From Beroe forskalii (taxonomy: Eukaryota; Ctenophora; Nuda; Beroida; Beroidae), in the NCBI GenBank assembly GCA_011033025.1, contig WFMF01000208.1:234877-298876 (forward strand): 64,000 nt of DNA, written 5' to 3'. The notes beneath the pieces are model-generated. The model ran no database searches, had not been told where the DNA came from, and was given only the letters and a program-made list of their open reading frames with translations. A program made the position numbers and the translations under genes. Positions 18,181 to 64,000 of the stretch are shown here, piece by piece; within the stretch, counting starts at the first letter, position 1, and every line of letters starts with the position of its first letter.

Positions 18181-19990
18181 CCGACTCGACTCAACTCGAC
18201 GACTCAACGACTCGACGACTTGACTTGACTCGACTCGACTCGACAACTCGACGACTCGACTCGACGACTCGACGACTCGACGACTCGACGACTCGACGAC
18301 TCGACTCGACGACTCGACTCGACTCGACTCGACGCGACTCGACGACTCGACTCGACGACTCGACGACTCGACGACTCGACTCGACTCTCGACGACTCGAC
18401 TCGACGACTCGACGACTCGACTCGACTCGACGACTCGACTCGACGACTCGACGACTCGACTCGACTCGACTCGACGACTCGACTCGACGACTCGACTCGA
18501 CTCGACGACTCGACTCGACGACTCGACTCGACGACTCGACTCGACGACTCGACGACTCGACTCGACTCTCGACTCGACGACTCGACTCGACGACTCGACT
18601 CGACTCGACTCGACGACTCGACTCGACGACTCGACTCGACTCGACGACTCGACTCGACGACTCGACTCGACGACTCGACTCGACGACTCGACGACTCGAC
18701 GACTCGACTCGACTCGACTCGACGACTCGACTCGACGACTCGACTCGACTCGACTCGACTCGACGACTCGACGACTCGACGACTCGACGACTCGACTCGA
18801 CGACTCGACTCGACGACTCGACTCGACTCGACGACTCGACTCGACGACTCGACTCGACGACTCGACTCGACGACTCGACTCGACGACTCGACGACTCGAC
18901 TCGACTCGACTCGACGACTCGACGCGACTCGCGACTCGACGACTCGACTCGACGACTCGACTCGACGACTCGACGACTCGACTTGACTCGACGACTCGAC
19001 TCGACGACTCGACTCGACGACTCGACTCGACGACTCGACTCGACGACTCGACGACTCGACGACTCGACTCGACTCGACTCGACGACTCGACGACTCGACT
19101 CGACGACTCGACTCGACGACTCGACTCGACGACTCGACTCGACGACTCGACTCGACGACTCGACTCGACGACTCGACTCGACGACTCGACTCGACTCGAC
19201 TCGACTCGACGACTCGACTCGACGACTCGACTCGACGACTCGACTCGACGACTCGACTCGACTCGACGACTCGACTCGACGACTCGACTCGACGACTCGA
19301 CTCGACGACTCGACGACGACTCGACTCGACGACTCGACTCGACTCGACTCGACGACTCGACTCGACGACTCGACTCGACGACTCGACTCGACGACTCGAC
19401 TCGACGACTCGCGGACTCGACTCGACGACTCGACGACTCGACTCGACGACTCGACTCGACGACTCGACTCGACGACTCGACTCGACGACTCGACGACTCG
19501 ACTCGACGACTCGACTCGACGACTCGACTCGACGACTCGACTCGACGACTCGACTCGACTCGGCTCGACTCGACGACTCGACTCGACGACTCGACTCGAC
19601 GACTCGACTCGACGACTCGACTCGACGACTCGACTCGACGACTCGACTCGACGACTCGACTCGACGACTCGACTCGACGACTCGACTCGACGACTCGACT
19701 CGACTATGATCGACTCGACTCGACGACTCGACTCGACGACTCGACGACTCGACTCGACGACTCGACTCGACGACTCGACGACTCGACGACTCGACTCGAC
19801 TCGACGACTCGACGACTCGACTCGACTCGACGACTCGACTCGACTCGACTCGACGACTCGACTCGACGACTCGACTCGACGACTCGACGACTCGACGACT
19901 CGACGACTCGACTCGGGACTCGACGACTCGATTTGACGACTCGACGACTCGACGAATCGACTAGACTCGACGACTCGACTCGACGACAGA
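18180..19990. repeat. 1.8-kb satellite of CGACT and CGA units
   Basis: The array mixes the pentamer CGACT with the trimer CGA, giving higher-order units such as CTCGACGACTCGA (13 bp). Interruptions are rare (CTCTCGACG near 18385, TATGATCG near 19706, TCGGGACT near 19913). Because the unit contains no stop in most phases, long open frames appear on both strands (plus 18225-18986 and 18983-19936; minus 20000-19704). These are repeat artefacts. TCGA occurs every 5-13 bp, so the block is extraordinarily CpG-dense compared with its AT-rich surroundings. Confidence 0.95.
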
Positions 19991-38714: not shown

Positions 38715-39605
38715 TTGTATATTACTGTGTGCTGCAAACGTTTAATGATGGAAGTACAAGAATTTTCATTGGAATGTATAAAATCTATAGAGGACGAACT
38801 GAGTAAGTCACTGTTCCAGACTTATAAGGTCAAGCGTGTTGAGGACATTGCTCTGAGTATGCTAAACAAGTCAAACAAAGATGTGCTGATTAGGCTGGTT
38901 ACCACACTTTCTGGTTCGCTCTCTCGCAGTCAAGTTTTGTTAAAGGATGCTGCTATCAAAGTTGAAAATTTCAAGACGCAGCAGATCAACCACCAAAAGG
39001 CTCTTTTGGATGCTAATCAGGAGCTCCTGTCATTGAAAAACGAGCAGTTGACTGTTGTCAAAGACACCGTTGCAACTGAAATGAGAAGCTGGTCGGACGT
39101 CGTGAAGAAGAACTGCGAGAAGAGCGGCAGTACAGTTAACCCACAGAAGATAAAGGAGGCTGTTAAATCTGCAGTCAGTGAGGAAGACAGACTTAACAAC
39201 GTGATTTTGTTTGGACTGGAGGAGCTGGAAGAGGAGGACGATGTCCATGACGCTGAGGACGAAGGGATGGTGGAGGAGATTGTCAGAGAGCTGAATGTGT
39301 CTCCTAACCTCGTTGCAGAGATTGAACGAGTGGGTGAACGGAGGGATGGGTTCATTCGCCCCATGAAGGTAAGAATGGTCAGGAAGGACTGTGTGGTGGA
39401 GCTGCTGGCCAGGGCAAGACGACTGAAGGACACTGTGAAGTATTCTTCTGTTTTCCTTGCCCCTGACAGGACCAGGGAAGAGCGATCTGCTCACAAGGAG
39501 CGTGTGGAAGCTCTGAAAAAGCGCCGTGAGGAGTGTCCCGACCGCGTGTTTTACCTCAGAGGGGATAAGATCTGTGAGAAGGCACGAACTGCCGCTCCTT
39601 CGTGA
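38715..39605 (+). CDS. LINE ORF1 protein (coiled coil plus RNA-binding-like domain)
   Basis: Intact 296-residue frame; internal methionines at 38745/38748 are also plausible starts. Residues about 15-130 are heptad-like and charged, suggesting a coiled coil. Then come VKSAVSEEDRLNNVILFGLE, an acidic stretch, and a region with IERVGERRDGFIRPMKVRM followed by FLAPDRTREERSAHKERVEA. This order is typical of ORF1 proteins in invertebrate LINEs of the L1/Jockey-like groups, which bind the element RNA. The related decayed copy is at 5.8-6.4 kb. The frame being open suggests recent activity. Confidence is high that it is transposon-derived, lower for the clade. Confidence 0.8.
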   Translation: MYITVCCKRLMMEVQEFSLECIKSIEDELSKSLFQTYKVKRVEDIALSMLNKSNKDVLIRLVTTLSGSLSRSQVLLKDAAIKVENFKTQQINHQKALLDANQELLSLKNEQLTVVKDTVATEMRSWSDVVKKNCEKSGSTVNPQKIKEAVKSAVSEEDRLNNVILFGLEELEEEDDVHDAEDEGMVEEIVRELNVSPNLVAEIERVGERRDGFIRPMKVRMVRKDCVVELLARARRLKDTVKYSSVFLAPDRTREERSAHKERVEALKKRREECPDRVFYLRGDKICEKARTAAPS

Positions 39606-41296: not shown

Positions 41297-41533
41297 GTAA
41301 TCAAGTGAGATTAACTATTGATCGAGATTCACAGCTAGATTATCAGTGCATAGGTACCGCACTATAGTGCCCTATAGTGCCCTATAGTGCCTATACTACA
41401 CTAAGCAAGGAATCCAACCAATGTGCAATGTACATGACGAATGGTTACTAGGCTAAATATGATAGAATTCTAATCATCGACATTATTTCTTACTTTCCCT
41501 GTAAAATATAACTGAATAACTTAACATTGCCAG

Positions 41534-41673
41534 GCAGCAGTGGGAGCGCAGACAACACTTCACTGAGGAGGAGCTCTCAGAGGCGCAGGAAAGGAAAAGC
41601 GATGGGAACGCATCATTGTCACTGTTCTTTTCATCTACTTCGTGTCAATAATCGTGGCAAACAATTTTAGACT
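41534..41673 (+). CDS. DNAJC4-like gene, transmembrane exon (one base short)
   Basis: The exon follows ATTGCCAG and ends ACT/GTGAGT. It reads QQWERRQHFTEEELSEAQER and, when compared with the second copy (56504-56644), continues into a membrane span, IIVTVLFIYFVSIIVANNF. In this copy a run of A near 41605 has four bases instead of five, shifting the frame to a stop before the membrane segment. The other copy has 141 bp and stays open, so the missing base is either a polymorphism or an assembly error. Confidence 0.8.
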
Positions 41674-42017
41674 GTGAGTCATCATTTGGGTAACTTATTT
41701 CTATCCCTATTGACACTGGCAATTTGTCTTTGTGATATGGTTAACCAAAATTCTTGCTTTGTTGTGTGAGATAGCCGGTCACCCTTAGGCTAAATGTGCT
41801 TTAAAGTACGTGTTGACACGTTTTCATAGCATGCCCACAGAAAATAATTTTAGGTTTTCCGACATTGGCTCCGTAGTTCAAGAGCCATGAAGCCTCACTG
41901 TTTACCAAGGCTGAACATGCATTGCACCCTTGCGTCCCTTGACATGTGCTTCGGAAGTTCGCAACATTGATCTGTCTCTTGTTTCTCATCTCGACTGACA
42001 GTGTGGTCTCGTTTCAG

Positions 42018-42257
42018 ATCCGCAGCTAGGAGAAGGATGGCAGATCCCTTGAATCCTGATGATGACCAGATCCGCGTTGTTCAGACCCAGGGGGAAGGGA
42101 TGCTGACACCAAGACAACAGGCAGCACTGGCAAGACAGAGGGAGGCAAAGGGCTTCATAGAATCTTACTATAAGAGTATGCAGGAGAAACAGAGTCGCCC
42201 CGAAAAGGAACAAGTCGCTGCTGCAGCTTCTGCCAATGAGGTCATTCCTCCAGAACT
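42018..42257 (+). CDS. DNAJC4-like gene, cytosolic or matrix exon
   Basis: A 240-bp exon between GTTTCAG and GAACT/GTATGT. It reads SAARRRMADPLNPDDDQIRV, then RQQAALARQREAKGFIESYY, then KSMQEKQSRPEKEQVAAAA. It is a charged helical segment after the membrane span, comparable in position to the post-membrane region of DNAJC4. The second copy (56990-57229) is the same length with a few residue changes (ADP to ARIP, QTQGEG to QARGR). Confidence 0.8.
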
Positions 42258-42438
42258 GTATGTGTCAGAGAGCTTCGAGCGCGATGTTTCACTTAGAAAT
42301 ACGTTTTTAATCCTAAAGGTGACCGGCAGTATCATCTTTTACTTACATGTAAGCATGTACTTAGATTAAATGCACAGTTATCTCTGTCTAGATCCCTCTC
42401 TGAATAAAACTATTTGATTACACCCTATTCCATCTCAG

Positions 42439-42730
42439 TGAAACGAAAGAAGAACGTAGACGTCGCCTATCTCACATGTCCGACATGGAAGCAGGACTTG
42501 AGGACGCTAAAATCGTTCAGAAGTACCGGGAAAGAATGCGAGTGAGAAGAGCAGGAGTGCAGAGTGTGAGCATGGAAAGCCCTGAGCAAGGGCGCGCTTC
42601 TGTTAAGAAGGTTGTAAATAATAGTGAGAAAGTTGTTAATAATCAGGAAACTGTGTCTAAATTAGGGGGTGATGAGATTCTAAGTTCATCAAACCAGACA
42701 GTTCAGCTTCAGAAAGAAATGAATAAATGA
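42439..42730 (+). CDS. DNAJC4-like gene, last exon
   Basis: The exon starts after CCATCTCAG and joins in frame; it reads ETKEERRRRLSHMSDMEAGL, then EDAKIVQKYRERMRVRRAG, and ends EMNK at TGA 42728-42730. A polyadenylation signal AATAAA is at 42791-42796. The fold-back element begins 114 bp further on, so the gene's 3' end is intact in this copy. Confidence 0.85.
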
Positions 42731-42929
42731 ATTTGTAATATCAATATAATATTGTAATAGTATGAACTCCTGTCTCACTAATTTGATAGTAATAAATCTT
42801 CAGAAAGATCAACTTTTCATCATTGGAATGTAAAAAGATCTTGTAGTTTACAATGAAGATACTTAAATGAAGAACATAACCTCTTATGCTATGATCCATT
42901 ATTCAGGTCGGGCATAGATCCGTTTGCCA

Positions 42930-43345
42930 CTTTGTCCGGGCGCCGGTCTGATGCAGGTCTGATGCCGGTTTGGTGCAGGTCTTGTGCCGGTCTGGTGCAC
43001 CTGTCTAATGCAGGTTTGGCGCCAGTTTTGTGCAGGTTTAGCGCCGGTTTAGCGCGGGGCCTGCGCCAGTCTAATGCAGGTCCTGTGCCACTCTAGTGCA
43101 GGTCTAGCGCCGGTTTGGTGAAGGTCCAGCGCTGGTTAAGCACGGGTACAGCGCTGGTCCAATGCAGGTCTAGCGCCGGTTTAATGCAGGTCTTGTGCCA
43201 GTCTAGTGCCACTCTGATGCAGGTCTAGCGCCGGTTTAATGCAGGTCTTGTGCCAGTCTAGTGCCACTCTGACGCAGGTCTAGCGCCGGTTTGGTGCAGG
43301 TCCGGCGCTGGTTGAGCGCCGGTGCGGCGCTGGTTCAGTGCACCT
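42930..43345. repeat. 11-bp tandem array, left arm
   Basis: About 38 units of GCAGGTCTGAT/GCCGGTTTGGT-type 11-mers in alternation, making a 22-bp higher-order unit. The inverse array is at 50620-50840. Confidence 0.9.
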
Positions 43346-43439
43346 CGGATGCTATCCCGATATTACTAGTGCATTTTATAAAGATTTGGGGGGGGCAACC
43401 CCCATAAACCCCCGGTGGATATCAAAAATGGCAAATGGA

Positions 43440-43570
43440 TTGATGATTTTGGACCCTTTTCTGAAATGGTACCATTTTCGATTGATGATTTTCGACCCTT
43501 TTCTGAAATGGAACCATTTTTTGTCGAAGATTTTCAACCCTTTTCTGAAATGGTACCATTTTTTGTTTTT
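43440..43570. repeat. ~42-bp GAAATGGTACCATTTT satellite, short array
   Basis: Three units, each with TTTTCTGAAATGGTACCATT and a GATTTTCGACCC or GATTTTCAACCC spacer. TGGTACCA is a perfect palindrome. The duplicated copy has about ten units (58420-58840), and single units reappear beyond the LINE at 48293, 49645 and 49823. Confidence 0.9.
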
Positions 43571-43571
43571 T

Positions 43572-44179
43572 ATATTCTGACTCATAACCGTATTATTTCT
43601 TGTCAAAAATGTCAAACTATATACCATGCAGAATGCTCAAAATCAAGTTTCAAATTCAATCATCTGACAAGGCAATGGCAATGTGCTGACTGTATATTGA
43701 ACTCTATTCCACGGTATAATCCGTTCATTGACTTAGAAACAGACAGGCATGACCAGTTCGATATGCAGCAACTAGATGATGTTAAAACAATCTCTGACAT
43801 ACTCAATGATTGCAAGTCATATGACAAAACTGGCCTTAAAACTGCCAGAGATCGTATTTCGAAAACAAAAAGCACGTTTTCAATTGCTTTTAATAATATT
43901 GATGGGAATAGCTCCAATTTTGATAGCTTTCTTGCCGATATATGTCAGTATGACTTGAAATTCAATGTGATAGCATTAGCTGAAACAAATTGCGATGTTG
44001 AAAATAAGGAGCTGTATGGTATACCTGGTTACGAGTCAGAGTATAACTCGAAAATTGCAAACAAATCTAAAGGTAGTGGCCTGGGAATATACATAACTGA
44101 TGACCACCAATTCACTAGAATTGAGAAATTTTGTCATTGTACTCAAAACTTAGAGTCTCTGTTCATAGAAGTAACCAGC
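43572..44179 (+). pseudogene. ORF2 N-terminal part: PHD-like finger and start of APE endonuclease
   Basis: The frame reads SCQKCQTIYHAECSKSSF and WQCADC, three of the four metal-binding pairs of a PHD-type finger (the first pair is lost at the truncation). After an 80-residue linker comes TFSIAFNNIDGNSSNFDSF, FNVIALAETNCDV and the GLGIYI strand, the first half of an exonuclease-endonuclease-phosphatase fold. The E in AETN is the expected metal-binding residue. The frame runs on from satellite sequence, so the start codon at 43415 is not the natural one. Confidence 0.8.
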
Positions 44180-44667
44180 TTAGTCTTAGTAAAACGGCCA
44201 AGGTCGGTTTAATCAACCAGGCCAGTGCAGCCATGCTGAGCATAGAGACTATCCCTAATACACTAGGCTAAGGGTGTGAACTCCTGGGTGGTTTTTAGGC
44301 CACCCGACTGCGGGTTATATCCTGGGCTGAGAGCAGAATCCAGTCCTGGACCACACAGGTCTGGGATTCTACCAACGCCCCTGGCTTCAAACGGACTGCA
44401 AAGCAAGTCAATGCTTGCCTGCAGATTAGGTCAGCTATCAGCCGAAGGTGGCTATGTACCACCTCCCTTCGTCTAGTGGATCACAGAGTGGCCTGACCCA
44501 ACCAGACTGTGAAAATCATATTCCCATCGATTGGGATTTAACTGGGCTCAATGGGCAAAGCCCAGTTCCAGGATACTGCCTGGAACAGAAGACAAAGAAC
44601 TGTTGAAAATGTTGTTAATGTTGCCCTTGTTATCCTTATATCTGTTGTTGTTGCTGTTGATTTGAGC
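44180..44667. mobile_element. 488-bp insertion splitting the endonuclease
   Basis: In the second copy, VTS is followed directly by TDSPQIIGVVYRPPSGD in one frame (62,210-62,270). Here 488 bp intervene, bounded by AGC on both sides (44177-44179 and 44665-44667). The insert includes CACCCGACTGCGGG and ends in a (GTT)n-rich tail, TTGTTGTTGCTGTTG. It has no A/B box that I can see and no coding content. It may be a short retroposon or another small element. Confidence 0.75.
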
Positions 44668-46800
44668 ACTGATTCTCCTCAAATTATTGGCGTTGTTTAC
44701 CGACCACCAAGTGGTGATCAAAAAACATTTTATAAAGAATTTGAGGATCTTCTTAAGGAATTGCCTGATAAAAACGTTCATATAACTGGAGACTACAACA
44801 TCGACTTACTCAGCAAGGGAAGTGACGAGTTTGAGCAATTGATCTACGAAAGAAACTTGATCCCAACAGTATCTATAGCTACCCATGAAAGGCCTGGTTG
44901 TAAAGCCTCCCTCATAGACAACATACTGATTAACTCAACTGATAAATTGCTCTTGTCAGGCGTTCTCAAGTCAAGAGTGTCACACCACTCCCCAATTTTC
45001 AATGTTTTTGAATGTAGCTCCAACAGTGATGCAAAACCTGAGAAGAGACTTCCAAAATACGATTTCTGTGAAACGAATGTAGATAAATTTATCTCCGATG
45101 TAGAAAATGAAATTGCGAGTCATCACCAAAATTATGAATTCCATGAACACAATTTCAATGGCTTTGTATCGTTCCTCCACGGAAAAATTGACACCCATTT
45201 TTTAATCGATGAAAAAATTTATTCAAATTCAAAAAGGAACAGATTATTTAACCCGTGGATAACAAATGGAATCATTGCCTCAGTGCAGCGCAAAATTTAC
45301 TTCTATGAGCAGTGGAAAAAGTCTTGTAACGAGCATAACAAACAGGGGGATGATGAACTTTATCAACGTTACAGGAACTTCCGATTTGAGCTAAAAAAGG
45401 TTATTAAGCAGGCCAAGAAATCTTATTACTATAAGAAATTCGAAAATGTACAGGGAGACATGAAAAAAACCTGGAAACTGATCAATGAACTGAGGGGAAA
45501 ATCAAAAGTTAATATCAAAGATTCATTCATAATCAATGGTGAAATGGTGAGAGATAGAAGGGTTATTGCCGAGGAGTTTAATATATTCTTCTCATCTATT
45601 GCTAGGAACCTTAACACAAAAGTATATTCTTCTACTCTGACAACAGGTCTTGAAGGACCAGGCGATAGCTTCTGGAAATTTTTAGATCCAAAGAAAAAAT
45701 CGTGCAACAGCTTTTTCATGTCTCCCTGCACTATAGACGAAGTTGCTGATATAATTAAAAACCTTGAAAACGGTAAAGCCAGTGATATCCCAATCTCACT
45801 CATAAAAAAGACATCAGGAACCCTACTTGGGCCCCTTTCTAAATTTTTCAATTACTTTCTTATGAATGGTATTTTTCCTAGCGTATTAAAGAAAGCCTCA
45901 GTAACACCAATCTTCAAAAAGGGTGACTCAAGATACCTTGATAATTATAGACCAGTATCTACACTCCCTCTTTTTGGAAAAATCTTAGAGAAATTGATTT
46001 ATAATCGTTTGTACAGTTTCTTCACAGCAAACAATACTATTTATGAAAATCAATATGGCTTCCGAAAAAATCATTCCACAAGTCATGCGGTAAACTTCTC
46101 TGTTAAACAGATTATTGACGAAATCGAGGAAAAGAGGCATGTTATTGGAATTTTTATCGACCTTAGTAAAGCATTTGACACCATATCCCATGAAAAACTT
46201 ATCCACAAACTAAACTTCTATGGTATCAGAGGCATTAGTCTCAAATTGATGAAAAGCTATCTTTCAGGTAGGGTACAAACCACAAAGTTTCAGTCAGAAC
46301 ATTCTGATGAATGTAATATGGAAGATGGTGTTCCACAAGGGTCAGTTTTAGGACCTTTACTGTTTTTGATATATGTAAACGATATCGTGATGACTTCAAA
46401 ATTAGGAAAATTTGTATTATATGCTGATGATACAAATATCTTTGTTTCTGGTAGCACTGAGAAGGAAGTCTATGAAAAATCTCAAATAGTTTTGAATGCT
46501 ATTTATGATTATATGTACGCTAATCAGCTCCATATAAATGTTGAAAAAAGTTGTTATATGCACTTTAGACATGAATATAATAATGACGAGAGATTAGCCT
46601 GTGCGAGAACAGATAGAACCTTTGATAAGTTACTCTCGCTGAAGCTCTGTAACAAGAAACTCAAAAAGGTATCAAAAGTCAAATTCCTTGGAGTTATTAT
46701 AGATGAAAAATTGAAATGGGAGGAACAAATTGACCACCTTCAGAAAAAACTTAAACTTAGTATAGTTATGATAAAAAGAATTAAAAAATTTGTTACTTGA
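44668..46800 (+). pseudogene. ORF2 continued: endonuclease C-half and reverse transcriptase
   Basis: The open frame covers IIGVVYRPPSGD and HITGDYNIDLL (endonuclease catalytic DxN), then SRVSHHSPI (terminal SxH). After a basic spacer the reverse transcriptase starts near LKKASVTPIFKKGD with NYRPVS, FRKNHSTSHA, IFIDLSKAFDTI, VPQGSVLGPLLFLIY and the active-site YADD (46420-46431). These are the standard RT blocks of CR1/L2-group LINEs. It ends at a premature TGA at 46798; the product would lack its C-terminal domain. Confidence 0.9.
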
Positions 46801-47417
46801 AAATATATAACGCACTTTTTGTACCCTATCTCACATACTGTATATCAGTGTGGGGTGGGGTATCTGACAACAAACTCTCTAAAATATTTTCTATACAAAA
46901 AAGATGTGTACGACTCCTCTTTGGTAATGAATTGACTTTTGATCACCAAGAATATTATTTGACATGTGCTAGAGCAAGAACACATTCTGAACACATGGCT
47001 CCAAAAAACTTCATACTTGAACACACCGAACCATTATTCAATGCGAATGGGCTCTTGAATTTGAGAAATATGTATAAGTATTTCACACTTCTTGAATTTT
47101 TTAAAATTCTGAAATACAAATCCCCTTTCCCGATTGCCGAATTGATGAAATTTGGCAAACAAAGTAGTAAAATTTCTCTATTACTGCCGACTGTCAACCT
47201 CGACGTCGGTATTCAGAGCTTTGTGTTCAGTGCTTGCAAGCTTTGGAATCAATATTCAAAACACCTGTTTGAGTCATGTACAGCAAATATGAGTGGGATT
47301 GTGGTACCTGGTTCAGCAAAAAATTCCGATTTGTCCACATCAGCAACAGTCATAAAATCAAAACTAAGAAGTTTACTTCTAATGGAACAAAAAGCAGGGT
47401 GTGAGATCACATGGTAA
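46797..47417 (+). pseudogene. ORF2 C-terminal domain, out of frame by one base
   Basis: In the next frame the sequence reads KIYNALFVPYLTYCISVWGG, a thumb-region motif standard for this LINE group, then ENELTFDHQEYYL-like and LWNQYSK segments to a stop at 47415-47417. Only a one-base indel separates it from the RT frame, so the break is recent or an error. Confidence 0.85.
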
Positions 47418-56450: not shown

Positions 56451-56503
56451 CTCATTATTTCTTACTTTCCCTCAAAAATACCTGAATAACTTAACATTGC
56501 CAG

Positions 56504-56644
56504 GCAGCAGTGGGAGCGCAGACAACACTTCACTGAGGAGGAGCTCTCAGAGGCGCAGGAAAGGAAAAAGCGATGGGAACGCATCATTGTCACTGTTCTT
56601 TTCATCTACTTCGTGTCAATAATCGTGGCAAACAATTTTAGACT
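56504..56644 (+). CDS. DNAJC4-like membrane exon, second copy (frame intact)
   Basis: The 141-bp version keeps the frame: QWERRQHFTEEELSEAQERK, then KRWERIIVTVLFIYFVSII, then VANNFRL. The hydrophobic run of about 19 residues is a clear membrane span. This copy shows what the exon at 41534 encodes without its missing base. Confidence 0.8.
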
Positions 56645-56989
56645 GTGAGTCATCATTTGGGTAACTTATTTCTATCCCTATTGACACTGGCAATTTGTCT
56701 TTGTGATATAGTTAACCAAAATTCTTGCTTTGTTGTGTGAGATAGCCGGTCACCCTTAGGCTAAATGTGCTTTAAAAGTACGTGTTGACACGTTTTCATA
56801 GCATGCCCACAGAAAATAATTTTAGGTTTTCCGACATTGGCTCCGTAGTTCAAGAGCCATGAAGCCTCACTGTTTACCAAGGCTGAACATGCATTGCACC
56901 CTTGCGTCCCATGACATGTGCTTCGGAAGTTCGCAACATTGATCTGTCTCTTGTTTCTCATCTCGACTGACAGTGTGGTCTCGTTTCAG

Positions 56990-57229
56990 ATCCGCAGCTA
57001 GGAGAAGGATGGCAAGAATCCCCTTGAATCCTGATGATGACCAGATCCGCGTTGTTCAGGCCAGGGGAAGGATGCTGACACCAAGACAACAGGCAGCACT
57101 GGCAAGACAGAGGGAGGCAAAGGGCTTCATAGAATCTTACTATAAGAGTATGCAGGAGAAACAGAGTCGCCCCGAAAAGGAACAAGTCGCTGCTGCAGCT
57201 TCTGCCAATGAGGTCATTCCTCCAGAACT
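56990..57229 (+). CDS. DNAJC4-like post-membrane exon, second copy
   Basis: Same 240 bp and phase as 42018-42257. Substitutions and small compensating indels give ARIPLNPDDDQIRVV and QARGRMLTPRQQ. The donor is GAACT/GTGTCA, weaker than GTATGT in the other copy because four bases are lost. Confidence 0.75.
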
Positions 57230-57403
57230 GTGTCAGAGAGCTTCGAGCGCGATGTTTCACGAAATACGTTTTTAATCCTAAAGGTGACCGGCAGTATCAT
57301 CTTTTACTTACATGTAAGCATGTAGTTAGATTAAATGCACAGTTATCTCTGTCTAGATCCCTCTCTGAATAAAACTATTTGATTACACCCTATTCCATCT
57401 CAG

Positions 57404-57581
57404 TGAAACGAAAGAAGAACGTAGACGTCGCCTATCTCACATGTCCGACATGGAAGCAGGACTTGAGGACGCTAAAATCGTTCAGAAGTACCGGGAAAGA
57501 ATGCGAGTGAGAAGAGCAGGAGTGCAGAGTGTGAGCATGGAAAGCCCTGAGCAAGGCGCGCTTCTGTTAAGAAGGTTGTAA
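57404..57581 (+). pseudogene. DNAJC4-like last exon, second copy, frameshifted
   Basis: Identical to 42439 onward until GAGCAAGGCGCG, where one G is missing from GGGCGCG. The frame then ends at TAA 57579-57581, about 50 residues early. A second missing G follows near 57630. The upstream J-domain exons are absent from this copy. Confidence 0.8.
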
Positions 57582-58419
57582 ATAATAGTGAGAAAGTTGT
57601 TAATAATCAGGAAACTGTGTCTAAATTAGGGGTGATGAGATTCTAAGTTCATCAAACCAGACAGTTCAGCTTCAGAAAGAAATGAATAAATGAATTTGTA
57701 ATATCAATATAATATTGTAATAGTATGAACTCCTGTCTCACTAATTTGATAGTAATAAATCTTCAGAAAGATCAACTTTTCATCATTGGAATGTAAAAAG
57801 ATCTTGTAGTTTACAATGAAGATACTTAAATGAAGAACATAACCTCTTATGCTATGATCCATTATTCAGGTCGGGCATAGATCCGTTTGCCACTTTTTCC
57901 AGGCGCCGGTCTGATGCAGGTCTGATGCCGGTTTAATGCAGGTCTTGTGCCAGTCTAGTGCAGGTCTGATGCAGGTTTGGCGCCAGTTTTGTGCAAGTTT
58001 AGCGCCGGTTTAGCGCGGGGCCTGCGCCAGTCTAATGCAGGTCCTGTGCCACTCTAGTGCAGGTCTAGCGCCGGTTTGGTGAAGGTCCAGCGCTGGTTAA
58101 GCACGGGTACAGCGCTGGTCCAATGCAGGTCTAGCGCCGGTTTATTAATGCAGGTCTTGTGCCAGTCTAGTGCCACTCTGATGCAGGTCTGGCGCCGGTT
58201 TAATGCAGGTCTTGTGCCAGTCTAGTACCACTCTGACGCAGGTCTAGCGCCGGTTTAGTGCAGGTCCAGCGCTGGTTAAGCGCCGGTGCAGCGCTGGTTC
58301 AATGCACCTCGGATGCTATCCCGATATTACTAGTGCATTTTATAAAGATTTGGGGGGGCAACCCCCCATAAACCCCGGTGGATATCAAAATGGCAAATGG
58401 ATTGATGATTTTGGACCCT

Positions 58420-58840
58420 TTTCTGAAATGGTACCATTTTCGATTGATGATTTTCGACCCTTTTCTGAAATGGAACCATTTTTTGTTGAAGATTTTCAAC
58501 CCTTTTCTGAAATGGTACCATTTTTTGTTGAAGATTTTTGGCACTTTTTAGAAATGGTACCATTTTTCTTTGCGTATTTTCGAACCTTTTCTGAAATGGT
58601 ACCATTTTTGGCCCTCTTCCGAAATGGTACCATTTTTCTTTTATGATTTTCGACCCTTTTCTGTTGACGATTTTTGGCCCTTCTTTGAAATGGTACCATT
58701 TTTCGTTGATGATTTTCGACCCTTTTCTGAAATGGTACCATTTTTTGTTGACGATTTTCAACACTTTTCTGAAATGGTACCTTTTCTGTTGAAGATTTTT
58801 GGCGCTTTTCTTAAATAGTACCATTTTTGTTGCGCATTTT
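58420..58840. repeat. GAAATGGTACCATTTT satellite, about ten units
   Basis: Units of 35-45 bp: CTTTTCTGAAATGGTACCAT followed by TTTTTGTTGAAGATTTT or similar. Open frames on both strands (FSEMVPFF-like and MVPFQKRVEN-like) are repeat artefacts. The full-length LINE begins at its right edge. Confidence 0.92.
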
Positions 58841-58844
58841 TGGG

Positions 58845-59233
58845 ATTTTACTGCATGCTGCCATAGGTAAACTGTTAAATTAGGAGACATAAGAATATTT
58901 TAAAATGCACACTCCTGCATAATACATTCTCGCCACCCATTTGTCACCAATTCACCCATATGTTTACTGTTGTGTGTTGTCGGTTTGATTGAAATCTTAA
59001 TTAGCAAGGAATGGAAATGACAGTGAAAAATATGTACTTGAGCTTTTCATATCAATTTAACCCAAGCCATCAACCTTATATTACACAATGACTTTTAACA
59101 TCTTATACTGCCAGAATTTTTATTTCAGGTGTCTGCCAGATCACTTTGCGTCTCATCTGGCCCCTGTTTGAGATGCTGAGAGTGGGGATCGCTCCAGCTA
59201 GCTCCCCGTGCACGGATTGGTGCTCTGGTTCCC
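58845..59233 (+). other. LINE 5' untranslated region
   Basis: Unique sequence between the satellite and ORF1. The exact element start is not marked by a repeat. Such regions carry the internal promoter in LINEs; I see no definite promoter element. Confidence 0.5.
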
Positions 59234-61555
59234 TTGTCCCCTGGAGCGCCTCCCTTCATCATCATGACGAAAGGCAAACGACCAGCCCAGTCTGGAGATC
59301 TGAAAACCCCTGCTGCAACCTTAACAGTCCCAAACAAGAGGGCTGCAAGGTCAGCTGGGAACTCACCTGCTTCTTCTCCAGTGAGTCGTAAAGACTCTCT
59401 CCCTCCCTCCAAGCCACCAACATCAAGCAGCTCAGTCGCTGAAGACCCTGATGAAACACTGCAGATAGATGTCCTAGAAACAAGTTCTAGCACACCAGCA
59501 AACATCAGTCTGCTAGCACCCACCAAGCTGACAAACTGTCCCTGTGCTGTGTTTGACCGGAAAAGCACAGACATCACATGCTCCAAGTGCAACAGAAGCT
59601 GGCACACAGAGTGTTGTAACCTGAAAGGACTTACACAAGCTGTTACCAAGAAATTGGGGCCTAAATGGGAATGCCCCTGGTGCTACCAGCCCTCAGTACC
59701 AAATCCTGATGTCAAAAATGGGAATGAGACTACAGAGTCGTTGAAAGCATTCATGTCTGACATCTCACGACTTCAGAACTGTTCTGAGATGCTAAGGGAT
59801 GGTGCCTCAAGTGTAGAGTTCTTCAATCACCACATCAAACATTTGCTCATTGAGGAAACCAAATTTAAAGATCATAGTAAAACAATCTCTGATCTTGCCA
59901 CGGATGTGAAGCTAATTAAGGATGACATCAAGGAAATGTCACTAAGACTAGCCAAAGGGACATCTGAATTTGAGGATATGAAATCCCACATCTCCACTGG
60001 CATAGTTAAGGATCACACTGCTGGATTCAAGGCTATTCGAGATGAGATTCATCAGTTGAAGGACCAAATGAACTCCTTGATCAGTAAGCCAGCCCAGGAA
60101 ATTTCTCCGGAGCTATCTGAGTCTATAAACAAAATCTCAAGATTTCCAATGGAAGAGATAAGTAAAATTGGGGAGAATGTTGCTGCATTCTCCAACAAAG
60201 TGTCCGACATGCAGCAGTCAATGACAGCAAACACCACAAGAAGCGACAGGCCATCATCTCCGTGTGCTATGCAACCCAACACTACATCACCACACATGAG
60301 GAAAAAAGAGGCTCCTTGTACACCGTTCACGATGTATAAAGACAATGCAGTCACACCCGATCTCAAAGACAGACTCCTTGGATTTGTCCATGGCACAGAA
60401 AGTGCATTCAAAACCATTGGATCTGAAAATTCTAGAGATGTCTTGTATTACAGAGACTATAGATACAGATACGCTGGTGGTGAACATAAGGCTCAGCCCA
60501 TCCCTGATGAAATCAAGAGCCTTATTGACTCTATTAAACCCCAACTTCAAAACCCTGAAGCAGTCTTCAACTCGTGTCTGATCAGCCGCTACTCGACAGG
60601 CTCAAACTGCATACCCCCTCATAGGGATGACGAAGCAGCAATTGATCCTGAATCAGACATAGTAACTGTTTCAATAGGAGCTGAAAGGACAATGACCTTT
60701 GCCAATAACTATGGAACCTCATCCGAGCAGAAGGTGCTTAAGGACAGAAGTGTTCTCGTTTCATCGAGATTCGCACAGGACTTCTGGGTTCACAGCATTG
60801 AACCATGCGAATCATCAGAGATACGGTACAGCTTCACATTCCGCCATATAGCCCCACACTTCATAAACAGCACAGTTATCCTAGGTGACTCGAACACAGC
60901 TAACATCAAGTTCGGGAGTGGGGTTGGTAAGCTCGGTGCTTGGATGCCAGGGAAACGGGTTAAGGTTGGTCACATTGATGCCATCCCTGAACCTGAGAAA
61001 ATCGGACCCTACAGAAATATAGTTATACACACCGGTATTAACAGTATTAACTGTAGCCCGAGATTCAAAAAGTCCAACAGAGCCCTCATTGAGGGCATGG
61101 AGGAAAAAGTGAGGAAAATATGTGAAATGTACCCAAAGGCGAAGGTCTACATAAGTCTCCTCCTTCCAACACGGCTACCATCACTCAATCACCGTGTACA
61201 GGACTTTAACAACCTCATACTGGACATGACGTATGGGATGAACCGAGTGTGTATCATCGAACACTCACTCCTCGGAGATCACCTATCAGACGAGCATGGC
61301 AGATGGAAGAAGGAGTCAGAGAATGTATTCCACCCACACACTGAAGATATGCTTCATCTGGGTAAAAAGGGAATAAGAATCTTTGCTGCTAATTTGAAAA
61401 AAACTGTCGTAAGCAAACCTAGGTCCGAGTCTGCAAATCGTTTTAGTGGAGGGCATGGAAGCTATAGGAGGGCTTTAGAAGGTAGTGGTACTGATTCCCG
61501 AAGGAGATCTGAAGGCCAGAACATACCAAGTCATAATGGTTACCAATCATCATGA
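59234..61555 (+). CDS. LINE ORF1: PHD finger, coiled coil, AlkB-like dioxygenase, SGNH esterase
   Basis: Intact 773-residue frame (a start at residue 11, 59264, is also possible). Residues 1-95 are Ser/Pro/Lys-rich. Residues 102-150 form a PHD-type zinc finger: C102, C104, C116, C119, H124, C127, C147, C150. Residues 160-330 are helical and probably coiled coil. Residues about 363-543 are AlkB-like: NSCLISRYSTGSNCIPPHRD gives H463-x-D465, FWVHSI gives H520, and RYSFTFR gives R531 and R537, the Fe(II) and 2-oxoglutarate ligands of the AlkB family. Residues about 546-722 are an SGNH/GDSL hydrolase: GDSN (S553), HTGINS (N603) and DMLH (D705, H708). PHD plus esterase is known in CR1-group ORF1; the AlkB insert is the unusual part. 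The stop overlaps the start of ORF2. Confidence 0.9.
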   Translation: MSPGAPPFIIMTKGKRPAQSGDLKTPAATLTVPNKRAARSAGNSPASSPVSRKDSLPPSKPPTSSSSVAEDPDETLQIDVLETSSSTPANISLLAPTKLTNCPCAVFDRKSTDITCSKCNRSWHTECCNLKGLTQAVTKKLGPKWECPWCYQPSVPNPDVKNGNETTESLKAFMSDISRLQNCSEMLRDGASSVEFFNHHIKHLLIEETKFKDHSKTISDLATDVKLIKDDIKEMSLRLAKGTSEFEDMKSHISTGIVKDHTAGFKAIRDEIHQLKDQMNSLISKPAQEISPELSESINKISRFPMEEISKIGENVAAFSNKVSDMQQSMTANTTRSDRPSSPCAMQPNTTSPHMRKKEAPCTPFTMYKDNAVTPDLKDRLLGFVHGTESAFKTIGSENSRDVLYYRDYRYRYAGGEHKAQPIPDEIKSLIDSIKPQLQNPEAVFNSCLISRYSTGSNCIPPHRDDEAAIDPESDIVTVSIGAERTMTFANNYGTSSEQKVLKDRSVLVSSRFAQDFWVHSIEPCESSEIRYSFTFRHIAPHFINSTVILGDSNTANIKFGSGVGKLGAWMPGKRVKVGHIDAIPEPEKIGPYRNIVIHTGINSINCSPRFKKSNRALIEGMEEKVRKICEMYPKAKVYISLLLPTRLPSLNHRVQDFNNLILDMTYGMNRVCIIEHSLLGDHLSDEHGRWKKESENVFHPHTEDMLHLGKKGIRIFAANLKKTVVSKPRSESANRFSGGHGSYRRALEGSGTDSRRRSEGQNIPSHNGYQSS

Positions 61556-64000
61556 TGAGGAGTTCAATATAAGAATTGAAAGAGAGAGTTGTAAAGTGTG
61601 CAATAAGTATATTCTGACTCATAACCGTATTATTTCTTGTCAAAAATGTCAAACTATATACCATGCAGAATGCTCAAAATCAAGTTTCAAATTCAATCAT
61701 CTGACAAGGCAATGGCAATGTGCTGACTGTATATTGAACTCTATTCCACGGTATAATCCGTTCATTGACTTAGAAACAGACAGGCATGACCAGTTCGATA
61801 TGCAGCAACTAGATGATGTTAAACAATCTCTGACATACTCAATGATTGCAAGTCATATGACAAAACTGGCCTTAAAACTGCCAGAGATCGTATTTCGAAA
61901 AACAAAAAGCACGTTTTCAATTGCTTTTAATAATATTGATGGGAATAGCTCCAATTTTGATAGCTTTCTTGCCGATATATGTCAGTATGACTTGAAATTC
62001 AATGTGATAGCATTAGCTGAAACAAATTGCGATGTTGAAAATAAAGAGCTGTATGGTATACCTGGTTACGAGTCAGAGTATAACTCGAAAATTGCAAACA
62101 AATCTAAAGGTAGTGGCCTTGGGAATATACATAACTAATGACCACCAATTCACTAGAATTGAGAAATTTTGTCATTGTACTCAAAACTTAGAGTCTCTGT
62201 TCATAGAAAGTAACCAGCACTGATTCTCCTCAAATTATTGGCGTTGTTTACCGACCACCAAGTGGTGATCAAAAACATTTATAAAGAATTTGAGGATCTT
62301 CTTAAGGAATTGCCTGATAAAAACGTTCATATAACTGGAGACTACAACATCGACTTACTCAGCAAGGGAAGTGACGAGTTTGAGCAATTGATCTACGAGA
62401 GAAACTTGATCCCAACAGTATCTATAGCTACCCATGAAAGGCCTGGTTGTAAAAGCCTCCCTCATAGACAACATACTGATTAACTCAACTGATAAATTGC
62501 TCTTGTCAGGCGTTCTCAAGTCAAGAGTCTCACACCACTCCCCAATTTTCAATGTTTTTGAAATGTAGCTCCAACAGTGATGCAAAACCTGAAGAGACTT
62601 CCAAAATACGATTTCTGTGAAACGAATGTAGATAAATTTATCTCCGATGTAGAAAATGAAATTGAGTCATCACCAAAATTATGAATTCCATGAACACAAT
62701 TTCAATGGCTTTGTATCGTTCCTCCACGGAAAAATTGACACCCATTTTTTTAATCGATGAAAAATTTATTCAAATTCAAAAAGGAACAGATTATTTAACC
62801 CGTGGATAACAAATGGAATCATTGCCTCTCAGTGCAGCGCAAATTTACTTCTATGAGCAGTGGAAAAGTCTTGTAACGAGCATAACAAAACAGGGGATGA
62901 TGAACTTTATCAACGTTACAGGAACTTCCGATTTGAGCTAAAAAAGGTTAGTTGTAAGCAGGCCAAGAAATCTTTTATTACTATAAGAAATTCGAAAATG
63001 TACAGGGGAGACATGAAAAAAACCTGAAACTGATCAATGAACTGAGGGGGAAAATCAAAGTTTTCAAGAATTTTCAAGGGGTTGGGAGATAGAAGGTTAT
63101 TGCCAGGTTTTAAAATATTCTTCTCTCTTTCTGGAACCTTAACAAAAATATTTCTTCTTAAAAAAGGTTTGAAGGACCGGGGTAACTTCAAAATTTTTGA
63201 TCAAAAAAAAAATCTCAACAGCTTTTTATGTTCCCCGCACTATAGCAATTTTAAAAATTAAAACAAAAAAAACCAGTATTCCCAATCTTATAAAAAAATA
63301 GGGAAACCCTTCCCCCAAATTTTCTTTTTCTTTGAATGGGATTTTTTTTTAAAAAACCTCAGTAACAAATCTTAAAAAATGACTCAGTCTTTTTAACCCT
63401 TCTCACTCCTCTTTTTTAAAAATCTTGAAATGATTTATAATCGTTTGTAAGTTTTTTCAAGAAAAATATTTTATGAAAAACAATAGGGTTGAAAAAAATT
63501 TCAAAACTGTTAAACCCCTTTTAAAAAGTTATACGAAAACAGGAAAGACTTTTTAAGGTTTTTAACCAGTAAAGCATTTGACACCTATCCTGAAAACTTA
63601 TCCCAAACAAAATTCTATTATCAAATTGTTAAAATTATGAAAAGCTATCTTTGGGTAAAAAACCACAAAACATCAGAAAATTTGATGAAAGTTAAAAGAT
63701 GTTCACAATTTTATGTTTTTTATATTTAAAAAAATATTAAAATTTTGGGAAAAATTTTTATATTGTGATACAAATTTTTGTTTTTGGCAGGAAAGTCTTT
63801 AAAAAAACTAAATAGTTTTGAAAAATTTTTTTTGATTATATTCGCTAATCAATCCCTAATTTAAAAAAAATTTTTTACTTTGGCATAAAATTTTACAGAT
63901 TACCCAAAAAACAGGAGAATTTGAAATTTCTCTGTGGGCTCTTTAAAAAGAAACTCAAAAGGGATAAAAAGTCAATTTAGTTTTATAGATGAAAAATTTG
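61536..64000 (+). pseudogene. LINE ORF2 (PHD-like finger, endonuclease, reverse transcriptase), error-ridden copy
   Basis: The probable start ATG at 61536 lies 20 bases before the end of ORF1, in another frame. The product begins MVTNHHDEEFNIRIERES, then CKVC, SCQKC, YHAEC and QCADC: a complete PHD-like set, C2-C2-HC-C2. The endonuclease follows, with GVVYRPPSGD uninterrupted at 62240-62270. Small indels break the frame from about 61820 onward; after 63040 they are dense, though the DNA still aligns base for base with 45520-46713 of the other copy. The window ends within the RT domain. Confidence 0.8.
63040..64000. other. Low-fidelity terminal kilobase
   Basis: Compared with 45520-46713, this stretch has lost about 200 bases in many small deletions and carries lengthened A and T runs. 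The pattern (loss within short runs, bias to homopolymers) fits uncorrected sequencing error rather than mutation. Frame-based calls here are unsafe. Confidence 0.75.

What the first reader, a model, noticed from the sequence alone, without database searches (positions are those of the whole stretch)
59234..61555. Retrotransposon ORF1 that combines a PHD finger, an AlkB-like dioxygenase and an SGNH esterase
A LINE ORF1 encodes three recognisable modules in one open frame. PHD and esterase are established for CR1-group ORF1. The middle module carries H-x-D (463/465), a distal His (520) and R-x5-R (531/537), the full ligand set of AlkB enzymes, which oxidatively remove methyl groups from nucleic acids. 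I am not aware of it as a standard LINE component. An element that carries its own demethylase could protect its RNA or cDNA from alkylation damage, erase host m1A/m3C/m6A marks or counter RNA-modification-based silencing, as proposed for AlkB domains in plant RNA viruses. All catalytic residues being present in an open frame argues for selection.
Basis: partly seen in the sequence, partly recalled or inferred. Interest (0 to 1): 0.92.

Follow-up and report, generated by a model that had tools for sequence, protein, structure and literature searches.

The report
Jumping gene carrying a repair enzyme
A retrotransposon, probably from a comb jelly, encodes in its first protein an enzyme domain of the AlkB type, a kind known for stripping methyl groups off DNA and RNA; the catalytic residues are kept in over two hundred related proteins, which suggests that the element uses a nucleic-acid demethylase when it copies itself.

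The parts
58841..59263 (+). 5' end and 5' UTR of the LINE
   Evidence: three other copies (L009, L002, L021) begin to match the window at 58841 and L004 at 58847
59264..61555 (+). ORF1, 763 codons from the ATG; the frame is open from 59234
   Evidence: conserved Met at residue 11
59537..59686 (+). PHD finger 1 (residues 102-151)
   Evidence: PHD_4 2e-4, under cut-off; conserved C/H columns; family profile hits BPTF PHD
59723..60229 (+). long helices, probable coiled coil (residues 164-332)
   Evidence: predicted model
60311..60868 (+). AlkB-like Fe(II)/2-oxoglutarate dioxygenase (residues 360-545); H463 60620-60622, D465 60626-60628, H520 60791-60793, R531 60824-60826, R537 60842-60844
60869..61414 (+). 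SGNH hydrolase/esterase (residues 546-727); S553, N603, D705, H708
61536..62138 (+). start of ORF2: PHD finger 2 (61590-61730) and, by match to the relatives, the first part of the endonuclease; overlaps ORF1 by 20 bases
   Evidence: PHD 1.8e-6; relative L034 has the same layout with a 1143-aa ORF2
62139..63998 (+). rest of ORF2, frame broken, low-quality contig end
   Evidence: 62216-63998 match the second copy's 44665-46712 at 79%
43571..47417 (+). second copy of the same element in the window, lacking ORF1: ORF2 PHD, endonuclease, RT, interrupted by about 480 bases at 44180-44664
   Evidence: 99% identity at 43571-44179; RVT_1 4.5e-39

Best explanation
This is ORF1 of an APE-type LINE of the CR1/L2 kind (clade not resolved) from a genome that is probably a ctenophore's. 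Shown by sequence and model: a PHD finger, a long helical stretch (probable coiled coil), a complete AlkB dioxygenase and a complete SGNH hydrolase in one protein, kept under purifying selection, upstream of a PHD-endonuclease-RT ORF2. Inferred: the coiled coil makes ORF1p multimers on the element's RNA. The AlkB domain uses Fe(II), O2 and 2-oxoglutarate to strip base methyl groups, most likely the N1-methyladenine/N3-methylcytosine type repaired by ALKBH2/3, from the RNA template and the single-stranded cDNA. Such methyl groups block reverse transcription (recalled). The esterase and PHD would place the particle at membranes and chromatin.
Against: No activity was or could be tested. Position 451 (AlkB Asn120, recalled) is Thr/Ser in 36 of 39 non-host-like domains and position 533 (AlkB Asn206, recalled) is Ser in 38 of 39, while all five host-type sequences have Asn at both; in the 114 further homologues 451 is Thr/Ser in 79, His in 19, Asn in 12, and 533 is Ser in 112. 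So 2OG binding or substrate may differ. D466, the AlkB D135 position that helps to set base preference (recalled; one search lists D135 mutants bound to m6A), is Asp in this ORF1 but Asn in 20 of 39, 39 of 116 and 94 of 114. Fold similarity shows no function. The substrate is inferred from relatedness only. This copy's own ORF2 is broken.
Confidence: 0.5

Rival explanations
1. The AlkB domain is an eraser of host silencing marks: it removes m6A from element RNA or 6mA from newly inserted DNA, as proposed for orchid Ty3/Gypsy elements, rather than repairing damage.
For: The orchid element's ALKBH5-like protein has RNA binding and demethylase activity in vitro (PMC9289625, abstract and passages). 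A review reports more N6-mA on young L1 5' ends in Alkbh1 knockout mouse cells (PMC4982230, passage). The family departs from ALKBH2 at two 2OG contacts and often at D466. PHD fingers in both ORFs suggest chromatin contact.
Confidence: 0.25
2. The domain acts on another substrate (host tRNA, mRNA or a protein) to change the host cell in the element's favour.
For: AlkB relatives act on tRNA and proteins (recalled). Most copies share two departures from ALKBH2, compatible with a new specificity.
Against: Fusion to ORF1 and retention across element groups suggest action on the element's own particle; nothing here points to a named host target.
Confidence: 0.13
3. The AlkB fold is a non-catalytic nucleic-acid binding module that replaces the RRM of other ORF1 proteins.
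For: No RRM matched in ORF1, and esterase-type ORF1 proteins lack defined RNA-binding domains (PMC3905857, passages).
Against: All five catalytic residues are kept in 223 of 229 homologues and 39 of 39 genomic domains; a mere binding module would not need them.
Confidence: 0.07
4. Chance motif or passenger fusion in a decayed copy.
For: This copy's ORF2 is broken.
Against: Pfam 1.3e-16, 115 homologues, model, dN/dS, many open copies.
Confidence: 0.01

Closest known systems
ALKBH2/ALKBH3 DNA and RNA repair dioxygenases
   Different: fused into a LINE ORF1; Ser/Thr instead of Asn at two 2OG-contact positions in most copies
Orchid Ty3/Gypsy elements with an ALKBH5-like ORF (PMC9289625; abstract and passages seen)
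   Same: a retrotransposon that carries its own AlkB-family enzyme
   Different: plant LTR element, separate ORF, ALKBH5 type, m6A; here a LINE, in-frame in ORF1, nearest to ALKBH2/3, in many copies and more than one element type
Esterase-type (type IV) ORF1 of CR1/L2 LINEs, e.g. ZfL2-1 (PMC3905857, PMC4120745; passages seen)
   Same: coiled coil plus SGNH esterase; the family profile hits 4c1b, named 'ORF1-encoded protein', at 6e-4 (that 4c1b is ZfL2-1 is recalled)
   Different: in PMC4120745 the terms 'alkb' and 'oxygenase' occur 0 times in the main text; the shown passages give esterase, zinc-finger/leucine-zipper, RRM, CCHC and PHD parts but no AlkB
AlkB domains of plant RNA viruses and giant viruses
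   Same: AlkB fold in a selfish element, found by fold among viral proteins
   Different: host, element type and flanking domains
Helitrons
   Same: a relative of the module (order SGNH then AlkB) is fused in one frame to a Helitron_like_N protein next to a PIF1 helicase frame
   Different: rolling-circle DNA transposon; five places stand out in this genome

Membership tests
AlkB/ALKBH Fe(II)/2OG dioxygenases | H-x-D...H iron triad | tested here: met
   H463, D465, H520; conservation
AlkB/ALKBH Fe(II)/2OG dioxygenases | R-x5-R for 2-oxoglutarate | tested here: met
   R531, R537 in 114 of 116 each
AlkB/ALKBH Fe(II)/2OG dioxygenases | double-stranded beta-helix of AlkB type | tested here: met
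AlkB/ALKBH Fe(II)/2OG dioxygenases | profile match over curated cut-off | tested here: met
   PF13532 61.9 bits against 31.2
AlkB/ALKBH Fe(II)/2OG dioxygenases | demethylase activity | not testable with these tools
   needs an assay
APE-type LINE (non-LTR retrotransposon) | ORF2 with endonuclease and RT downstream | tested here: met
   window copy 2 RVT_1 4.5e-39; L034 Exo_endo_phos 1.1e-6 and RVT_1 8.5e-35, both over cut-off; ORF2 downstream in 23 of 30 loci
APE-type LINE (non-LTR retrotransposon) | dispersed copies with a common 5' end | tested here: met
   69 matching stretches on many contigs, some of them pieces of one copy; shared start at 58841 in three copies
APE-type LINE (non-LTR retrotransposon) | 3' tail and target-site duplication | not tested
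   the contig ends before the 3' end
CR1 or L2 clade | placement of RT in a clade tree | not tested
   no reference RTs at hand; PHD and esterase ORF1s are reported in both CR1 and L2 lineages
Type IV (esterase) ORF1 | coiled coil plus SGNH with catalytic residues | tested here: met
   S, N, D, H all four in 104 of 115. The single-protein Pfam match for SGNH is under cut-off
Helitron (relative at C847, L032 and L035) | Rep (Helitron_like_N) and PIF1 helicase | tested here: met
   2.2e-24 and 1.2e-25 in neighbouring, overlapping frames
Helitron (relative at C847, L032 and L035) | terminal sequences and HUH motif | not tested
   not examined

The most novel reading that the evidence does not exclude
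In one animal lineage (probably ctenophores) a paired AlkB demethylase and SGNH hydrolase module became a general accessory of mobile elements with single-stranded intermediates. It is carried by more than one LINE ORF1 type and by a Helitron, in up to some 140 places of one genome, as an element-encoded repair or mark-erasing enzyme that acts on the element's own RNA or DNA.
Probability: 0.5. Interest if true: 0.87.

Novelty: new variant of a known kind. Interest (0 to 1): 0.8.

Why it matters
ORF1 proteins are presumed to package the element's RNA, and the esterase type was called unique among ORF1 proteins in having an enzymatic function (PMC3905857, passages). A conserved nucleic-acid demethylase fused to that esterase would be a second enzyme. 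It would make base methylation of element RNA or cDNA, as damage or as host defence, a selective force on animal retrotransposons that can be tested directly. The Helitron case widens this to DNA transposons.

Tried and rejected
Chance motif: rejected. Host ALKBH gene that captured a LINE: rejected, because ORF2 follows and copies are dispersed, and four host-like single-domain ALKBH candidates plus human ALKBH2 branch apart from the 39 other domains (split support 97.2/97; tree unrooted, several deep branches weakly supported).

Led nowhere: a scan of viral contigs found no relative. A search with the AlkB domain alone found seven short relatives and no named free-standing ALKBH. The RT clade was not resolved. 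Whether RT copies without AlkB in my lists lack it cannot be told: only 150 of 189 AlkB candidates and 60 of 2988 RT candidates were scored. By coordinates, 18 of 60 RT hits had a listed AlkB within 4 kb upstream and 11 more had SGNH but no listed AlkB; 59 of the 86 SGNH hits that I entered (of 134 matches) had a listed AlkB directly upstream. One of those counted as lacking it, C847:41962, does have it, so these are lower bounds. dN/dS: 5 of 253 pairs passed the filter (AlkB dS between 0.05 and 1.2) and two of the five share a sequence; the closest pair to the window's copy (L001-L003, 61 AlkB codons) has dN 0.007 and dS 0.026, too few changes to weigh. In L034 the SGNH part gave no Pfam match at E 0.01; it rests on alignment and motifs.

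Print: searches for AlkB with LINE, non-LTR, Helitron, ctenophore, SGNH and a five-term set, for dioxygenase/ORF1/PHD, esterase/PHD/ORF1/CR1 and Mnemiopsis/ORF1 listed no LINE or Helitron AlkB; I judged the listings by title and abstract start. I opened ten papers, passages only; none of the passages describes one. The other listed papers were not opened. Subscription papers, preprints and Repbase entries are not covered.

Full report

The element. ORF2 begins at about 61536, overlapping ORF1 by 20 bases, with a second PHD finger, and is broken after about 62140. The window end is the contig end, and the last kilobase or so is rich in homopolymer runs, so the breaks may be sequencing error. 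A second copy at 43571-47417 lacks ORF1 but has RT (RVT_1 4.5e-39). Three other copies start to match the window at 58841 and one at 58847, which marks the 5' end. An open relative, L034, has ORF1 of 722 aa (AlkB over cut-off; PHD only weak, E 0.007; SGNH by motif and alignment, no Pfam match) overlapping ORF2 of 1143 aa with endonuclease and RT over cut-off.

How common. The window's own genome (216 Mb, 1134 contigs) has 69 stretches that match ORF1, some of them pieces of one copy (58 of 444 first-look candidates scored). ORF2 lies downstream on the same strand in 23 of the 30 loci fetched, which include the window's own copy and some loci that overlap each other. Ten places have both an ORF1 or AlkB frame of 661-804 aa and an ORF2 frame of 1039-1200 aa without stops: C702, C352, C192, C55, C110, C580:1702811, C1024, C1080, C847, C370; I read only C702 in full. 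PF13532 itself matches 150 places over cut-off (150 of 189 candidates scored); four of these (L037-L040) look like host ALKBH genes, and for most of the rest the element around them was not read. In the public protein set, 115 relatives were found with P0001 and 114 with a second, more diverse alignment (about 7990 candidates scored in each); 113 of the 115 and 114 of the 114 bear a precomputed PF13532, and the only organism named, in six of the 229, is Mnemiopsis leidyi. The host is therefore probably a ctenophore; this is inference.

Conservation and selection. All five ligand residues are kept in 111 of 115 and 112 of 114 relatives (of the six exceptions, P0105 and P0107 lack part of the domain) and in all 44 domains of an alignment of 39 non-host-like copies, four host-like genes and human ALKBH2 (six partial or duplicate domains were dropped beforehand; for some of the 39 no ORF2 was read, so that they belong to elements is inferred). 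dN/dS (Nei-Gojobori) for AlkB is 0.145, 0.075, 0.106, 0.088 and 0.096 in the five of 253 pairs that pass the dS filter, like SGNH (0.045-0.206) and the N-terminal part (0.130-0.219, three pairs). Two positions that in AlkB are 2OG-contact asparagines (recalled) are Thr/Ser in 36 of 39 and Ser in 38 of 39 copies, and Asn in all five host-type sequences; this is a shared mark of the group and a reason for caution about substrate.

Wider pattern. AlkB plus SGNH occurs also in a LINE without the N-terminal PHD (L033: 531-aa ORF1, 889-aa ORF2 with RT), in proteins with other N-termini (L051, L053; element type not determined), and in swapped order, SGNH then AlkB, at the start of a 2026-codon frame that runs into a Helitron_like_N domain with a PIF1 helicase frame following (L032, L035). 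In L033 and L051 the SGNH match is under Pfam's cut-off. The Helitron form stands out at five places (C847, C225, C208, C281, C297); the Rep and helicase were seen only at C847. In an unrooted tree the non-host-like domains separate from host ALKBHs with support 97.2/97, but the Helitron's place among them is weakly supported.

Mechanism. Shown: domains, order, conservation, selection, linkage to ORF2. Inferred: ORF1p coats element RNA and the AlkB domain removes Watson-Crick-face methyl groups that would block reverse transcription. ALKBH2/3 as nearest kin and the near-invariant HxDxE motif favour m1A/m3C over m6A; the loss of two asparagines, and Asn at D466 in 20 of 39 genomic copies and 94 of the 114 further homologues, leave substrate open. 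The Helitron has no RNA intermediate (recalled), so an RNA-only role does not cover all cases. The rival, erasure of m6A or 6mA silencing marks, has a tested precedent in orchid Ty3/Gypsy elements (PMC9289625).

Comparison. It is a member of the AlkB family by fold, ligands and profile, and of the esterase-type ORF1 by probable coiled coil and SGNH. An AlkB domain inside a LINE ORF1 or a Helitron was not found in print with the searches listed under Tried and rejected; AlkB in an LTR retrotransposon is known. Hence a new variant of a known kind.

Noticed in passing
L032 (C847:362500-369500) with L035 (C847:369001-374000); L031 (C225:191000-197000): Protein that begins with SGNH then AlkB, then a proline-rich repeat stretch; at C847 it runs into Helitron_like_N, with PIF1 helicase in the next frame. 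Five such SGNH-AlkB places in the genome.
   Followed up: partly
L033, L041-L043, L045-L050: A second group of AlkB-SGNH proteins (open frames 416-561 aa) without a PHD match seen; an ORF2 with RT was read only for L033.
   Followed up: partly
L044, L051, L052 and L053: AlkB plus SGNH-like proteins with other N-terminal parts; the element type was not determined.
   Followed up: no
41481-43567 and 56453-58529: 97.6% identical stretch upstream of both copies of the element although the element's 5' end is at 58841; it may be a segmental duplication with a 3-kb deletion or an assembly or haplotype effect.
   Followed up: partly
44180-44664: About 480 bases inserted in ORF2 of the second copy, absent from the first; possibly another mobile element.
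   Followed up: no
62900-64000: Homopolymer-rich, error-like sequence at the contig end; 62216-63998 are 79% identical to the second copy.
   Followed up: no
18225-19936: Long simple repeat, G+C 0.59 with 0.37-0.38 in the neighbouring 2-kb blocks, open frames of Thr-Arg-Leu-Asp-Ser type.
   Followed up: no
38715-39605: 296-codon frame that looks like the ORF1 of a different LINE, by eye only.
   Followed up: no
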